Source of the DNA: an uncultured Brachyspira sp. | GTDB lineage: Bacteria; Spirochaetota; Brachyspiria; Brachyspirales; Brachyspiraceae | Length of the DNA: 37,320 bases | Direction of reading: 5' to 3' | Assembly (NCBI GenBank): GCA_944392715.1 | Contig: CALXXQ010000014.1 | Span: forward strand, 1-37,320 | In this document: piece by piece, positions 26,911 through 37,320 of the stretch | Numbering within the stretch: the first letter of the stretch is position 1 | How the letters are laid out: the number at the start of each line of letters is the position of its first letter | Notes under the pieces: model-generated | Told to the model about the DNA's origin: nothing | Databases searched by the model: none | What the model saw: only the letters and a program-made list of their open reading frames with translations | Position numbers and translations under genes: made by a program

Positions 26911-27230
26911 AAAACCCACCCTTTAGGTTTATTAATTATATCAACATTTTAAAATTTTATTTATATTAAATGCTTCAATTATAAAAGCATACCCACCCAA
27001 GTGATGATTAGATTTAGAATTTATCTAAACGCACGTTAAATGCATTTTAATATATTATTTAAATGTATTAATAATTAAACTTATATTTTTAGTTTTGTTC
27101 ACCGTGCGGTAAAAATATAACAAATTTAAATAGCACTTGGGCGGGTGCTATAATTTCTAATAATGCAATAAAGAAAATAAAAGTAACATTATTTATTTAG
27201 ATAAAATAGAATAAAGGGCGGGGATTTAAA
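26911..27230. repeat. Nested inverted-repeat element, copy A
   Basis: This 320-base intergenic element fills the 412-base gap before the Mrr-type gene. In an AT-rich background it carries six GC-rich clusters at 26915, 26992, 27030, 27103, 27139 and 27216: CCCACCC, CCCACCC, CGCACG, CGTGCG, GGGCGGG, GGGCGGG. The first pairs with the last, the second with the fifth and the third with the fourth, so the whole forms a long imperfect hairpin. Start-to-start spacing is mirrored: 77, 38, 73, 36, 77. The AT-rich arms between clusters also pair in part. It matches copies B and D in length, order and spacing. Confidence 0.88.
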
Positions 27231-27301: not shown

Positions 27302-28189
27302 ATGGCACTTTTGAAATACAGAGATTATGATAAGTATGTATTAAAATTTTTCTATGAAATAAATAAACCAGCACATAGAAAAGATACTTATAACAAATTA
27401 AAAGAATATACAAATACAACTGAAGAAGATTTTAACTTAATAACAAAAAATGGATACAATAAATTTAATTCTAGAATTCATTGGTCTTTAGTTGTATTAA
27501 AAAAAGCCCAGTTAATAGAAAATATAGATAAGGGAATATATCAAATAACTGATTTCGTTAAAAAATTCTATGAAGAAAATCCTAATTTCGATTTTAAAAC
27601 ATTAAAAGAAAAAACGCCTTATTTAGAAAATAGCAAAAGTAATTCAGATGATGATGACATAGAAGAAATAGAAGATAAAAATAGAAATGAAATAGAAAAG
27701 AGTATTGAAGAATATTATGAGAGTGTAGAAAAAGATATACTAGACCGCTTGCAGTCTATGGGTGAAAGTAATGTCGATAAAGGTACTAAATTTGAAAATA
27801 TATGCTTAGAGCTGCTTGAGAAAATGGGTTATGGAAAAAAGTATAGAACAGGAGGAAGCGGAGACAGAGGAATTGACGGCACTCTTACTATGGATAAATT
27901 TGGTTTTGATATGATAGGTATACAATGCAAATGCTACAAAGAAAATAATAGAGTTAATGATACTGAAATAACCAAATTTGCACATGGTCTTAAAAATGTT
28001 AATGGTATAAACAGAGGAATTTTTATAACAACTTCAGATTATACTCCGCAGGCTAAAAAGGTTGTAGAAGAATTAAAAGATATAAAAATAATTTTAATTA
28101 ATGGATATAGGCTTGCTAAATATATGCGTGAATATGAAGTTGGAGTGAAAGTACTTGAAACAAGAAATATTTATGACGTTATAATATAA
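27302..28189 (+). CDS. Mrr-type restriction endonuclease
   Basis: This 295-residue protein has an N-terminal winged-helix domain as in Mrr (about 1-95), an acidic hinge (DDDDIEEIEDK, around 116-126), and a C-terminal Mrr catalytic domain. The nuclease residues are all present: E165 (KFENICLELL), D192 (GDRGIDGTL) and Q208-x-K210 (GIQCKCYK). The closing GIFITTSDYTPQAKKVV and NGYRLAKYM are family-typical. Mrr enzymes cut methylated DNA or act under stress. TTAGGAG is 8 bases before the ATG. It lies between repeat copy A and an ATPase/nuclease pair on the same strand, with a separate promoter for that pair. With a CCGG-type methyltransferase 3 kb away, it presumably does not cut that methylation. 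Confidence 0.92.
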   Translation: MALLKYRDYDKYVLKFFYEINKPAHRKDTYNKLKEYTNTTEEDFNLITKNGYNKFNSRIHWSLVVLKKAQLIENIDKGIYQITDFVKKFYEENPNFDFKTLKEKTPYLENSKSNSDDDDIEEIEDKNRNEIEKSIEEYYESVEKDILDRLQSMGESNVDKGTKFENICLELLEKMGYGKKYRTGGSGDRGIDGTLTMDKFGFDMIGIQCKCYKENNRVNDTEITKFAHGLKNVNGINRGIFITTSDYTPQAKKVVEELKDIKIILINGYRLAKYMREYEVGVKVLETRNIYDVII

Positions 28190-33167: not shown

Positions 33168-33488
33168 AATCCCACCCTTTAAATTTAAAGTAACAATTTC
33201 AATTTAAAATTCTATTTATATTAAATACCTAAATTATTAAAGCATACCCACCCAAGTTCTTATTAAACTCATAATTTTTCTAAACGCACGCTAAATAGAT
33301 TTTTATATATTATATTAATTGCATTTATAATTAAATTTATATTTTGAACATCATTCTGCGTGCGATTAATTAAACAACAAATTTAAATAAAAACTGGGCG
33401 GGTGCTAAAATTTCTAATTAAGCTATAAAGATAATTAAAACTAAAAATTCAAAATAAAGTAATTGATTTTAAAGGGCGGGGATTTAAA
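33168..33488. repeat. Nested inverted-repeat element, copy B
   Basis: This 321-base copy fills most of the 446-base gap between two minus-strand genes. Clusters start at 33171 (CCCACCC), 33248 (CCCACCC), 33285 (CGCACG), 33359 (CGTGCG), 33396 (GGGCGGG) and 33474 (GGGCGGG). Spacing is 77, 37, 74, 37, 78. The ends read AATCCCACCCTTTAAATTTA and AAAGGGCGGGGATTTAAA and pair over about 16 bases apart from the central cluster position. On the minus strand it lies between the small exported-protein gene and the HAD gene, as a possible 5' leader of the HAD gene. Confidence 0.9.
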
Positions 33489-33542: not shown

Positions 33543-34031
33543 TTATTTTTCATAATTGTATTTTAATATTTCAGAAAATATTTTACAAGTTTTGCTATTT
33601 ATCTTATATCTATTTGTATCATTTTCTGTAATATATTCCAAATAAACATTCCCATTATAAAAAAATTCTATAAGCTTATCTATATTATCAATATTATTAA
33701 GTCCTATAAAAACCAAACTATTTTCTGCATGCATTAAATTAATCTTAGGAATTATAAAAGTATCAACCTTATTGTTAAATTGTACTTCTTTTAAATCTTC
33801 TAATTGTTTATCAAATCTAATTATAGTTTGTATAACAAATAAATCATCTTCCATTTTTAGAGTACTAAAAGATAATGTATTAACTTTTTTTATATTAAAT
33901 ACATAACTGCTTGATTTTTTATCATAACTAAAATATTTTTTTAAAAAATTTTCATCAGCATGAAAAGTAATAGAATATCCTCTAAAAATAAAACTAAACA
34001 TAAAAATAAAAATTAGTAATATTCTTTTCAT
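33543..34031 (-). CDS. Small exported protein, unknown function
   Basis: This 162-residue protein has a signal peptide MKRILLIFIFMFSFIFRGYS, probably cut after GYS (type I; there is no lipobox cysteine). The mature part has alternating strands (VFNIKKVNTLSFSTLKMEDD, FVIQTIIRFDKQLEDLKEVQF) and no cysteine apart from one near the C-terminus (SKTCKIFSEI). I do not recognise a family. AAGG precedes the ATG. It lies between half copy C (upstream) and full copy B (downstream) of the nested repeat, in the accessory region. Location outside the cytoplasm is inferred from the signal peptide. Confidence 0.75.
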   Translation of the reverse strand: MKRILLIFIFMFSFIFRGYSITFHADENFLKKYFSYDKKSSSYVFNIKKVNTLSFSTLKMEDDLFVIQTIIRFDKQLEDLKEVQFNNKVDTFIIPKINLMHAENSLVFIGLNNIDNIDKLIEFFYNGNVYLEYITENDTNRYKINSKTCKIFSEILKYNYEK

Positions 34032-34112: not shown

Positions 34113-34210
34113 TTAATCCTACCCTTTTAAATTTATAGTTTTAATTTCAATTAAAAATTTTATTTATATTAAAAGCTTAAATTAGAAAAAGCACACTCGC
34201 CCAAAATTTA
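34113..34210. repeat. Left half of a nested inverted-repeat element, copy C (decayed)
   Basis: This stretch matches the left part of copies A, B and D: CCTACCC at 34118 and CTCGCCC at 34196, 78 bases apart as in the full copies, joined by the same AT-rich spacer (TTTTATTTATATTAAA and similar). The inner CGCACG and the whole right half are missing, so it cannot form the full hairpin. It lies directly upstream of the small exported-protein gene (minus strand). Confidence 0.72.
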
Positions 34211-34271
34211 TTTAAATTTATAATACATACTGTATATATATTGATTTTTTAAGTTTGTCAATTTTTTTATT

Positions 34272-34297
34272 CAACTTTTTCCCGCCGCAAAAAGTTG
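34272..34297. repeat. Perfect 9-base inverted repeat upstream of the TPR gene
   Basis: CAACTTTTT and AAAAAGTTG surround a GC-rich 8-base loop (CCCGCCGC). A related but looser structure (GTTCTTTT ... AAAAGAAC) precedes the second direct repeat at about 35300-35344, and both are followed by an ACGCTT ... CGnAAAAG segment, so the wider region is a second repeat family. Confidence 0.65.
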
Positions 34298-34320
34298 CTG
34301 CCACAGGCACGCTTCGCAAA

Positions 34321-34412
34321 AGTACAAGTGTTTAGCTTCATATATTCGGAATATATAAAAACTAAAATAATATTTATATTTTGTGTAAAAAATGCAGTTC
34401 TTTTGTTTTTTT
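34321..34412. repeat. Direct repeat, copy 1, left of the TPR gene
   Basis: A 92-base stretch from AGTACAAGTGTTTAGCTTC to the T-run matches 35349-35440 in the same orientation at roughly 85-90% identity by eye. The shared centre includes CTAAAATAATATTTATATTT and AAAAAATGCAGT. The two copies flank the TPR gene. Confidence 0.85.
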
Positions 34413-34435
34413 CTAAACCAATGCGCGTTTAGAAA
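34410..34435 (+). other. Hairpin before the TPR gene
   Basis: TTTCTAAAC (34410-34418) and GTTTAGAAA (34427-34435) pair perfectly around CAATGCGC, followed by TATATTTTTT. It sits 79 bases before the TPR start and could be a terminator for anything entering from the left or an attenuator in the leader. Confidence 0.6.
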
Positions 34436-34514
34436 TATATTTTTTACTAATTATTATGGTATTAATTTTTTTTTATACTATAATGATTTTCATAAATTTA
34501 TATTAGGAAATTTT

Positions 34515-35216
34515 ATGTCAGTTATTAATTACAATGATTCTAGTAGGGATTCAAAATATTATTTTGATAAGGCAAATATTTTTTGTCTTGAAGGAAAATA
34601 TAAAGAAGCCATAGTATATTATAATAAGACCATAGAGTTAGACCCTAATTATAGTGCTGCTTATTATAACAGAGGAAGTGTTAAAGCTGATTTAGGTGAA
34701 TATGAAGAAGCTATTAAAGATTATGATAAGGCTATAGAGTTAGACCGTAATTATACTTATGCTTATAACAACAGAGGGCTTGCTAAAGATTATTTAGGTG
34801 AATATGAAGAAGCTATTAAAGACTATGATAAGGCTATAGAGTTAGACTCTGATTACAGTGATGCTTATAATAACAGAGGACTTGCTAAATATTATTTAGA
34901 TAAATATGGAGAAGCTATTAAAGATTTTAATAAAGTAATAGAATTAACCCCTAATTATACTAATGCTTATTATGACCGAGGAAATGCTAAAAAAAATTTA
35001 GGTCAATATAAAGAAGCTATTAAAGACTATGATAAGGCTATAGAGTTAAACCCTAATAATGGAGCTTTTTATAATAACAGAGGAGTATCTAAAGAAAATT
35101 TAGGAGAGTACAATGAAGCTTTAAAAGATTATAAAAAGGCTTTGGAATTAGACCCTAACCATGATATTGCTAGAGAAAATATAAAAGAGATTCAAGATAA
35201 ATATGGCTTGAAATAA
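34515..35216 (+). CDS. Tetratricopeptide-repeat protein
   Basis: This 233-residue protein starts at the ATG at 34515 (MSVINYNDSS), with AGGAAA about 5 bases upstream. An in-frame ATG at 34392 would place a hydrophobic, Phe-rich stretch in front with no ribosome site and is rejected. It consists of six near-consensus 34-residue TPR units (for example SAAYYNRGSVKADLGEYEEA, then IKDYDKAIELDRNY), highly alike at DNA level too, so repeat number may vary by slippage or recombination. A short capping helix (ARENIKEIQDKYGLK) ends it. TPRs bind other proteins. There is no signal peptide, so it is probably cytoplasmic. The gene is enclosed by 92-base direct repeats and looks like a cassette. Confidence 0.9.
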   Translation: MSVINYNDSSRDSKYYFDKANIFCLEGKYKEAIVYYNKTIELDPNYSAAYYNRGSVKADLGEYEEAIKDYDKAIELDRNYTYAYNNRGLAKDYLGEYEEAIKDYDKAIELDSDYSDAYNNRGLAKYYLDKYGEAIKDFNKVIELTPNYTNAYYDRGNAKKNLGQYKEAIKDYDKAIELNPNNGAFYNNRGVSKENLGEYNEALKDYKKALELDPNHDIARENIKEIQDKYGLK

Positions 35217-35348
35217 AAGGCAAAGCCCAAACTATAAATTTAAAACACTAAATTTTTTAGTATATGCCATAAGTTTTTGAGCTTACAAAAAATTTTATTG
35301 TTCTTTTTCCCGTAGCTACGCTTTGAGGACTTCGTAAAAGAACCAAAA

Positions 35349-35440
35349 AGTGCAAGTGTTTTGCTTTATATCTTTGAAATATATAAAAGCTAAAATAATA
35401 TTTATATTTTGTATAAAAAATGCAGTCTTTTTGCTTTTTT
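35349..35440. repeat. Direct repeat, copy 2, right of the TPR gene
   Basis: This is the second copy of the 92-base repeat at 34321-34412, in the same orientation. It is preceded by a segment (about 35300-35345) that also resembles the left flank of copy 1. The following bases carry CCACAGGCAC (35450-35459), which also occurs left of copy 1 (34301-34310), so parts of the repeat are shuffled. Together with the palindrome at 35490 it accounts for most of the 371-base gap between the TPR gene and the broken DUF285 gene. Confidence 0.85.
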
Positions 35441-35489
35441 GGGTCATACCCACAGGCACTTCCTTAGGTCGCCAAAAGAAGTAGGGGTA

Positions 35490-35505
35490 CGGGGGCTAGC
35501 CCCCG
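35490..35505. repeat. GC-only palindrome
   Basis: A perfect 16-base palindrome, CGGGGGCTAGCCCCCG, preceded by GTAGGGGTA. It is by far the most GC-rich spot in the window. Neither side has a proper T-run, so it is not a standard terminator. Confidence 0.75.
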
Positions 35506-35587
35506 ATAACAATAAAAAAATTACAAACTTAAAAATTTTTAGTATATACAATTTATAAAGTATATTACAATCCAGTATAAATAACTT

Positions 35588-36280
35588 TTAATTTTTATAC
35601 CAATAAGGTGTATTATTTTCCATTGCTGAATTATTAAACATATATCTCATATAATTAGGCTCTACTTTGGATACATTCCAACTATTTAAAGGCTGATTAA
35701 AATTAGAACATGCATAAAAAACATAACGCATATCTTTCACATTAGATACATTCCAATTCTCTATATTTTGATTAAAGCTTTTATATCCATAGAATATACA
35801 ATATAAAGTTTCTGCATTTGAAGTATTCCAATTTTCTAAAGGCTTATTAAAATTAAAGCAATTATAAAACATAAAAGAAAAATTTGTTATATTAGAAGTA
35901 TCCCATTGTTCTATATCTTGATTAAATATTGAACAATTTCCAAACATAGCCTGAACATCGTTAACATTAGAAACCTTCCATTTATCAAGAGGCTGATTAA
36001 AATTTATACACTCCCAAAACATATAAGACATATTTTCAACTTTAGAAACGTCCCAGCTATTAATATTATAATTAAAATTTTCTGACAATTCAAACATACT
36101 GCTCATATTAACAACATTAGAAGTATTCCAAGTTTCAAGTCCTTCAAAATTTACTCTTTTACTTTATTTAAACAATTCGCTCATATCAGTAATTAAACTT
36201 GTATCTATATCGCCCAAATAAATATTTTCATCTTGTATTAAAATTATTAATTCTTCTCTTGTTTGAGGTTTATATTTCAT
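35588..36280 (-). pseudogene. DUF285 (BspA-type) repeat protein gene with one in-frame stop
   Basis: The frame starts at the ATG at 36280 with AAGGAAA at a good distance, and opens MKYKPQTREELIILIQDENI like the DUF285-DUF4132 protein. Codon 39 is TAA (36164-36166), inside ELFK*SKRVNFEGLETWNTS, where the paralogue has an Asn codon in ELFRNSKRKNFEGIETWNTS. After the stop the frame continues intact for 192 codons with about five more DUF285 repeats (NMSYMFWECINFNQPLDKW and similar), ending WYKN. Repeats of this type are usually surface proteins, but no signal peptide is present. A single nonsense change is the simplest reading. A downstream start at 36106, readthrough or a sequencing error are alternatives. 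Confidence 0.82.
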
Positions 36281-36346
36281 TATTATGTTTCCTTATTCTT
36301 TTTTATTATTCTATATTCTTTTTCATATTTTGCAATTTTATCAAAA

Positions 36347-36665
36347 AATCCCACCCTCTATATTTACAACTTTTATCTATTATTTTTATTTTATACTTCT
36401 TTAAAAATAATACTGCAATTATAAACCCCACCCAAAATTTTATTTAACTTTATAATCTATTCACCGCACGCAGAATGAAATTATAAATATATATTAATTA
36501 TGAATTATAATTTTTACTATATTTGAAATTTCACTTACCGTGCGTATAGTAAAGTATTAAATTTAAAAAAATCTTGGGCGGGTGCTAAAATTCCTGATAA
36601 AGCTATAAATATAATAACACTTAAATTACATAAAAAACTATAAAGAATAAAGGGCGGGGATTAAA
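36347..36665. repeat. Nested inverted-repeat element, copy D
   Basis: This 319-base copy fills most of the 405-base gap between two minus-strand genes. Clusters start at 36350 (CCCACCC), 36427 (CCCACCC), 36465 (CGCACG), 36539 (CGTGCG), 36576 (GGGCGGG) and 36652 (GGGCGGG). Spacing is 77, 38, 74, 37, 76. The inner stem is extended by a TGAAATT/AATTTCA pair not present in A or B. On the minus strand it immediately precedes the broken DUF285 gene. Confidence 0.88.
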
Positions 36666-36685
36666 AATAATTTTTTAGCATTAAA

Positions 36686-37320
36686 TTAAGAAAACATATC
36701 AGTAAGCCTAAAATCCCAAATCATTAAAATAAGTAAAGTATAAATAAATCTTTCTGATACTTTTTTGTTATATTCATTATGAAAGTTAATGTTTATTTTT
36801 ACTTTATCTTTATAATCAATATCATTATTGGCATCTATTTTTATTTCAAAACAATCTCCATTGTCTAGTTTTAAATTATAAGTTTCAACTACACCATAAT
36901 CTAAATAACTAGGATTCATTGAATACCTAGCACCGAAAGCCTTAAAAGTACCATAAGATATTTCAAGATTTTGTAATTTTTTTATTTCATTTTCCAAATT
37001 ATTTTTATCTAATTTTATTATACTTAATTGATTTATTGTTTGAGTAAGTTCATAATCTTCTAATTGTTTTTTCCATTTTGTAATAGTTTCATTATCCATT
37101 TCTATAGGGCTTGCCAAACTTATAAAGCTGTCATCATCAATATTTATTTCTTCATCATCGCAATTTGTATAACTTCCGTCACCTGCATATCTAAATGTAG
37201 TTAAAAACAAATTATCTTTATCATATAAATTCCAAATAAGCGAAGAAGAAAATTTATTCATTATAGAATTATCAATAAATACTTCTTTGAAAAAACTATA
37301 ATTATATTTCTTTTCATGCA
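36686..37320 (-). CDS. DUF4132 (MolR-type) protein, C-terminal part, runs off the right edge
   Basis: The minus-strand frame is open to the right edge, with no stop in the bases beyond the internal ATG at 37261. The residues there (HEKKYNYSFFKEVFIDNS) continue the match to the paralogue, so the true start is outside the window. The visible 211 residues match the end of the DUF285-DUF4132 protein: SLIWNLYDKDNLFLTTFRY, GDGSYTNCDD, SPIEMDNETITKWKKQLEDY, then ELTQTINQLS. It differs from the paralogue in the middle of this region (GTFKAFGARYSMNPSYLDYG). It ends 21 bases before repeat copy D. Function of DUF4132 is unknown. Confidence 0.85.
   Translation of the reverse strand, partial: HEKKYNYSFFKEVFIDNSIMNKFSSSLIWNLYDKDNLFLTTFRYAGDGSYTNCDDEEINIDDDSFISLASPIEMDNETITKWKKQLEDYELTQTINQLSIIKLDKNNLENEIKKLQNLEISYGTFKAFGARYSMNPSYLDYGVVETYNLKLDNGDCFEIKIDANNDIDYKDKVKININFHNEYNKKVSERFIYTLLILMIWDFRLTDMFS

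What the first reader, a model, noticed from the sequence alone, without database searches (positions are those of the whole stretch)
34272..35440. TPR gene as a cassette between 92-base direct repeats
The repeats (34321-34412 and 35349-35440) are in the same orientation, and a related hairpin-bearing segment precedes each. Recombination between them would delete the TPR gene cleanly. The TPR units themselves are also alike in DNA, so repeat number can change.
Basis: seen in the sequence. Interest (0 to 1): 0.5.

Follow-up and report, generated by a model that had tools for sequence, protein, structure and literature searches.

The report
Roaming TPR gene among hairpin repeats
A small helper-protein gene in a gut spirochaete sits among copies of a repeated DNA hairpin, and nearly identical copies of the gene lie at other chromosomal places in other species, so it appears to have travelled recently, although the two repeats first noticed are probably not what carries it.

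Summary
Observation confirmed: 34318-34412 and 35346-35440 are direct repeats, 88% identical. They are pieces of a ~235-nt element ("A"): two inverted hairpin modules whose arms stay complementary (133 of 141 units). A is dispersed through Brachyspira (0-178 exact module motifs per genome, 26 genomes) and rarely flanks TPR genes on both sides (2 of 34). The TPR gene is mobile, but the shared unit is 34437-35216 (leader plus ORF to the stop codon), not the DNA between the A copies. Units 92-94% identical lie at other places in other species. In all 10 pairs of five species its dS is 0.04-0.12, against 0.28-1.53 for three reference genes, so it spread recently between species. At one site, two species without the gene carry one copy of a second palindrome ("B") where species with it carry two: the footprint of gain or loss by recombination between direct repeats; three further gene-less species do not show it. 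Unit number varies (498, 696-702, 802 nt). No A-A deletion was found, and no RAYT/IS200 transposase in 26 genomes. Most likely: horizontal transfer plus repeat-assisted homologous recombination. Ectopic conversion between TPR paralogues is a serious rival.

The parts
34262..34423 (+). Left A element, cut inside its right hairpin module (profile 3-165 of 237)
   Evidence: profile match 86 bits; same A/TPR-leader junction in G022, 34386-34492 vs L067 4214-4324, 75%
34282..34292 (+). CCGCCGCAAAA, core of the left hairpin; identical to the 11-bp repeat reported to flank a B. hyodysenteriae prophage
   Evidence: one match in the window, 0 in 100 shuffles; PMC8845278 passage
34437..35216 (+). Shared (mobile) unit: leader with promoter-like sequence plus TPR ORF up to the stop codon
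   Evidence: blastn to L065-L068 92.5-93.6% ending at 35217 or 35218; dS 0.04-0.12
34515..35216 (+). TPR protein, 233 aa, six TPR units
   Evidence: PF00515 206 bits against cut-off 27.8, six stretches
35219..35272 (+). Possible right end of the left A element, displaced by the TPR unit (weak)
   Evidence: profile of A right ends, E=0.19, second-best place in the window
35292..35521 (+). Right, nearly complete A element (profile 5-232 of 237)
   Evidence: profile match 190 bits
34118..34225 (.). Half of a B palindrome left of the TPR locus
   Evidence: profile match 46 bits
33170..33487 (.). Complete B palindrome
   Evidence: profile match 249 bits, both strands
36349..36663 (.). Complete B palindrome
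   Evidence: profile match 176 bits, both strands

Best explanation
The TPR gene with its leader (34437-35216) is a recently spreading member of a large Brachyspira TPR gene family. It moves between species and chromosomal sites by horizontal transfer followed by homologous recombination. The dispersed palindromic repeats of the intergenic regions (A here, B elsewhere) supply homology by which it is gained or lost. Here it lies in or beside the first of a tandem pair of A repeats, so the 92-base direct repeats are two copies of a common repeat rather than cassette ends. Shown: A and B are dispersed families; the unit is near-identical at several sites in several species; its dS is far below that of reference genes; at one site presence or absence goes with double or single B in two of five gene-less genomes. 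Inferred: the recombination mechanism, its direction, delivery (for example by the gene transfer agent VSH-1), and insertion into an A tandem.
For: Shared unit 34437-35217/8 at 92.5-93.6% in L065, L066, L067, L068 with different neighbours. dS 0.04-0.12 for TPR vs 0.28-1.53 for GTPase-like, 177-aa and RND-like genes in 10 of 10 pairs. GTPase side: TPR in G012, G005, G010; not in G004, G008, G023, G024, G003; flank matches overlap by 226 nt (G005/G008), 134 nt (G005/G004), 339 nt (G012/G004), i.e. one repeat copy in the empty site. A or B within 150 nt on both sides of 13 of 34 TPR genes vs 4 of 414 others. Tandem direct A pairs without TPR, e.g. in L081 and L084.
Against: No overlap of the main flank matches for G012/G008 (52-nt gap) nor for G005 or G012 against G023, G024, G003. 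The unit ends at the stop codon with three different 3' flanks, which flanking-repeat recombination does not by itself explain. The RND-side site has no clean empty counterpart. At this site the A-tandem reading rests on a weak match. In one search orthologues were not merged and the profiles were partly trained on TPR loci.
Confidence: 0.55

Rival explanations
1. Ectopic gene conversion: resident TPR paralogues at fixed places are overwritten by incoming TPR DNA, so the sequence moves but the loci do not.
For: The shared unit ends exactly at the stop codon while flanks stay site-specific; many TPR matches per genome, 9-87; differences between copies come in short blocks; G030 has a different TPR gene at the place where G028 has its copy.
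Against: No TPR match at the GTPase side in G004, G008, G023, G024, G003 nor at the 177-aa side in G001, G007, G027, so whole genes also come and go.
Confidence: 0.25
2. Non-autonomous transposition: an unidentified transposase moves the unit with B-type ends, like a mobile insertion cassette.
For: B starts within 12 nt of the stop codon in 14 of 1016 ORFs, 9 of them TPR; B is self-complementary.
Against: No Y1 transposase in 26 genomes; the copies have at least three different right flanks. Other transposase families and target-site duplications were not examined.
Confidence: 0.1
3. One reading: the segment between the two A copies is the cassette and is excised by A-A recombination.
For: Direct orientation and 88% identity over 95 nt; comparable single/double repeat patterns with family B elsewhere.
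Against: Homology to other sites excludes both A elements; G022 has the left A junction but no A right of its TPR gene; A on both sides in 2 of 34 TPR genes, inverted.
Confidence: 0.07
4. Artefact: the window genome is fragmented and the repeat-rich contig end was wrongly joined.
For: 214 contigs, 86% complete; contig C14 is exactly the window and the locus lies 2 kb from its end.
Against: The left A/TPR junction and the downstream DUF4132 gene recur in G022, and the unit recurs in other genomes.
Confidence: 0.03

Closest known systems
REPINs / BIMEs with RAYT (TnpA-REP) transposases
   Same: High-copy, intergenic, short hairpin modules with a conserved tail, often as inverted pairs (A family)
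   Different: Much longer spacer, no Y1 transposase in 26 genomes, tail CAAAAAG..GCA rather than the GTAG or CGTC tag named in the title of PMC3733652
MITEs and mobile insertion cassettes (definition recalled)
   Same: B is a ~320-nt self-complementary repeat, and TPR genes sit between B copies
   Different: No related transposase identified, no target-site duplication shown, copies of the TPR unit have differing right flanks
Repeat-mediated gain and loss of genes by homologous recombination, with gene-transfer-agent delivery (VSH-1)
   Same: Single versus double direct repeats at empty and filled sites; low dS across species
   Different: Direction and delivery not shown; the repeats are genus-specific palindromes

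Membership tests
REPIN/RAYT | High-copy intergenic palindromic modules | tested here: met
   0-178 exact module motifs per genome, 22 of 26 genomes, reversed control 0-1; 133 of 141 units with complementary arms
REPIN/RAYT | Two modules in inverse orientation | tested here: met
   Of 45 neighbouring module pairs within 400 nt, 28 tail-to-tail, 12 head-to-head, 5 direct
REPIN/RAYT | RAYT (Y1 transposase) in the genome | tested here: not met
   PF01797 in 0 of 26 genus genomes; found in 5 of 14 control genomes
REPIN/RAYT | GTAG or CGTC tag at one end | tested here: not met
   Module tail is CAAAAAG(T or ACT/GCT)GCA in the aligned copies
MITE / mobile insertion cassette | Inverted ends | tested here: met
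   B profile matches both strands over its whole length
MITE / mobile insertion cassette | Parent transposase with the same ends | not tested
   Only the Y1 and tyrosine-recombinase families were searched
MITE / mobile insertion cassette | Target-site duplication | not tested
   No set of clean empty sites was available
Integrase attachment site | Hairpin module beside integrase genes | tested here: not met
   Module motif in 0 of 20 short-integrase, 1 of 20 long-integrase and 0 of 30 Xer-like loci; exact 11-mer in 0, 0 and 1. One published prophage is flanked by the 11-mer
Tetratricopeptide repeat protein | TPR motifs above the Pfam cut-off | tested here: met
   PF00515 206 bits vs cut-off 27.8

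The most novel reading that the evidence does not exclude
Brachyspira runs a transposase-free cassette economy: genus-specific palindromes act as portable homology arms, so promoter-plus-gene units delivered between species, for example by its gene transfer agent, can enter and leave many chromosomal sites, and the TPR family spreads and diversifies this way.
Probability: 0.2. Interest if true: 0.7.

Novelty: new variant of a known kind. Interest (0 to 1): 0.5.

Why it matters
If right, a host-associated genus with a known gene transfer agent carries its own sets of dispersed homology arms, which would make gene exchange in it partly predictable from repeat maps. It also gives a concrete test case: a gene with synonymous divergence of 0.04-0.12 between species whose reference genes differ by 0.28-1.53, placed at different sites.

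Tried and rejected
Transposase of the RAYT/IS200 kind: none in 26 genomes. Known RNA families: no match at gathering threshold in the window. Hairpin as a general integrase target: not borne out for 40 of the 113 PF00589 matches, plus 30 Xer-like loci as a comparison, although one published prophage repeat equals the hairpin core. A scan of IMG/VR for that core gave three contigs with no A or B match. Phage records: no match. Plasmid records: six, none covering 80% of the query; four match the TPR part (three annotated TPR), two weak Stammera matches fall in the AT-rich leader. Clean empty site at the RND-like gene: homology ends about 90 nt after the gene and other genes follow. Reading 35219-35272 as the right end of a split A: kept only as suggestive (E=0.19).

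Corrected on the way: the arm rule was wrong and its table is not used (redone); the pattern had the wrong spacing and was redone; a strict expression found only 26 units and is superseded. The 188-aa neighbour was too rare, found well in 2 of 26 genomes, to serve as an anchor.

Full report
WHAT IS THERE. The two direct repeats are real: 34318-34412 and 35346-35440, 88% identical over 95 nt (E=7.7e-16 for the left copy from the right one alone). They are parts of a larger element, here called A, about 235 nt: a left hairpin module (GTTCTTTT, CTTCTTTT or CAACTTTT, loop, complementary arm, tail CAAAAAG..GCA), an AT-rich spacer, and the same kind of module in inverse orientation (32 of 67 hits aligned). 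The right copy is nearly complete (35292-35521, profile 5-232) and the left one is cut inside its right module (34262-34423, profile 3-165).

A IS A GENUS-WIDE STRUCTURED REPEAT. DNA 35290-35510 matches 15 places in the window's genome and matches 12 of 12 other same-genus genomes in the relatives set, against 1 of 8 genomes outside the genus. An exact core was found in 77 stretches of GTDB genomes, 76 of them Brachyspira and one a Dependentiae MAG. An exact module motif occurs 0-178 times per genome, in 22 of 26 genus genomes, and the reversed control 0-1 times; G000 has 8. In 141 distinct module units with a recognised 5' arm, from 117 loci (960 kb), 133 have complementary arm variants; shuffled arms give 60.5 on average and at most 77. 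In the earlier count 8 of 149 units had no recognised 5' arm; units within 70 nt of a locus end and repeated contexts were dropped. Units share ancestry, so this shows at least a few compensatory switches, not 133. All three arm variants occur within G007 alone, where 33 of 38 match. Most loci were fetched with a pattern that selects one 3' arm variant, not the 5' arm.

A SECOND FAMILY. B is a ~320-nt self-complementary element (CCCACCC.., ACGCACG..CGTGCG..GGGTGGG) with complete copies at 26915-27229, 33170-33487 and 36349-36663 and a half copy at 34118-34225. An exact motif of it occurs 0-78 times per genome in 23 of 26 genus genomes, control 0-1. Shorter forms of about 200 nt are frequent.

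THE TPR GENE IS MOBILE, WITH DIFFERENT ENDS. DNA matches of the window to four TPR genes in other species run from 34437 (L066, L067, L068) or 34460 (L065) to 35217 or 35218, at 92.5-93.6%; two further copies with changed unit number (L069, L070) also start at 34437 and end at 35217, in two pieces each. The shared unit is leader plus ORF to the stop codon. The neighbourhoods differ: L066, L069 and L070 share one (beside a GTPase-like gene), L068 another (RND-like), L065 another (a 177-aa gene), and L067 resembles the window: same left A junction (34386-34492, 75%) and the same DUF4132 gene downstream at 84%. Gene labels are mine except those from Pfam. After the stop codon the copies have three kinds of flank: B in L066, L068, L069, L070; a different short sequence in L065 and L067; another in the window.

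RECENT SPREAD BETWEEN SPECIES. For all 10 pairs among G000, G012, G022, G028 and G030 the TPR gene has dS 0.04-0.12, while the GTPase-like (150 aa used), 177-aa and RND-like (400 aa used) genes have 0.28-1.53. Fourfold sites are 94-100% identical in TPR and 38-82% in the others. dN is 0.03-0.07, dN/dS about 0.4-1.2.

GAIN OR LOSS AT MATCHED SITES. GTPase side: TPR present in G012, G005, G010; no TPR match in G004, G008, G023, G024, G003, which keep B elements there. In G005 against G008 the left and right flanking matches overlap by 226 nt in G008: one B in the empty site for two around the insert. The same holds for G005/G004 (134 nt) and G012/G004 (339 nt; there the insert also holds a 188-aa gene). 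It does not hold for the main matches of G012/G008 (52-nt gap), nor for G005 or G012 against G023, G024, G003. By eye, G008's single B resembles the left copy at its left and the right copy at its right. In the other genomes the GTPase flank showed no TPR match within the 1500 nt or less held. 177-aa side, 26 genomes: TPR in G028, a different TPR gene in G030, B or A without TPR in G001, G007, G027; of the 21 others 20 have none of these within the flank held and one has A fragments. RND side: TPR in G030 only; several others carry B or A there. Which state is ancestral is not known; G010, the most divergent of the eight at the GTPase gene, has the TPR gene, so some absences may be losses.

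REPEATS BESIDE OTHER TPR GENES. A or B within 150 nt on both sides: 13 of 34 TPR genes against 4 of 414 other genes. ORFs near locus ends and identical proteins were dropped; orthologues were not merged; the profiles were trained partly on TPR loci. A alone on both sides: 2 of 34 (L061, L062, likely orthologues), in inverted orientation. B begins within 12 nt of the stop codon in 14 of 1016 ORFs, 9 of them TPR genes of two subfamilies. TPR unit number varies: 696-702 nt in five copies, 498 nt in G010 (two 102-nt units fewer) and 802 nt with a frameshift in G005.

READING. The best single account is horizontal transfer followed by homologous recombination at dispersed repeats; here the unit lies in or beside the first of a tandem pair of A elements. 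Tandem direct A pairs without TPR occur, for example in L081 and L084. The proposed split of the left A (35219-35272 as its lost right end) is weak (E=0.19). Ectopic conversion among resident TPR genes explains the sharp end at the stop codon well and may act too.

LITERATURE. Searches of the open-access library for Brachyspira with intergenic, palindromic, repetitive or repeat sequences and with tetratricopeptide and ankyrin listed no paper whose title or abstract start names such repeats. PMC3532143 was seen as 12 of 14 found passages and PMC2897892 as 5 of 5; none shown describes them. PMC8845278, seen as passages, reports a prophage flanked by CCGCCGCAAAA, which is the hairpin core at 34282-34292, lists a TPR protein among variable gene clusters, and says VSH-1 mediates transfer in vitro. 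REPIN papers were seen as a search listing only. Subscription papers were not searchable.

Noticed in passing
34515-35216 and homologues L065-L068: Amino-acid differences between TPR copies often come in short blocks, with dN/dS about 0.4-1.2, suggesting unit swapping, relaxed or diversifying selection.
   Followed up: partly
33543-34031: A 162-aa gene of no Pfam family sits between B copies here and in L072, L073 and L075, beside different neighbours; found in 5 of 26 genomes. Possibly a second travelling gene.
   Followed up: partly
27302-28189: A 295-aa gene is 98% identical in protein to a copy in G010 (L072) while the neighbouring 162-aa gene is 86%: perhaps another recent transfer.
   Followed up: no
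34282-34292: The hairpin core equals the 11-bp repeat reported around a B. hyodysenteriae prophage (PMC8845278 passages); a specific integrase may use this hairpin although most integrase loci examined lack it.
   Followed up: partly
34392-34514: The A repeat supplies an in-frame ATG that lengthens the listed TPR ORF to 274 aa; probably not the real start.
   Followed up: no
35588-37318: DUF285 piece followed by a B palindrome and a DUF4132 piece; in G022 one 796-aa gene shows similarity to both, so the window copy looks rearranged.
   Followed up: no
L143 1892-1913: The A core pattern has one exact match in a Candidatus Dependentiae MAG contig; chance or contamination not examined.
   Followed up: no
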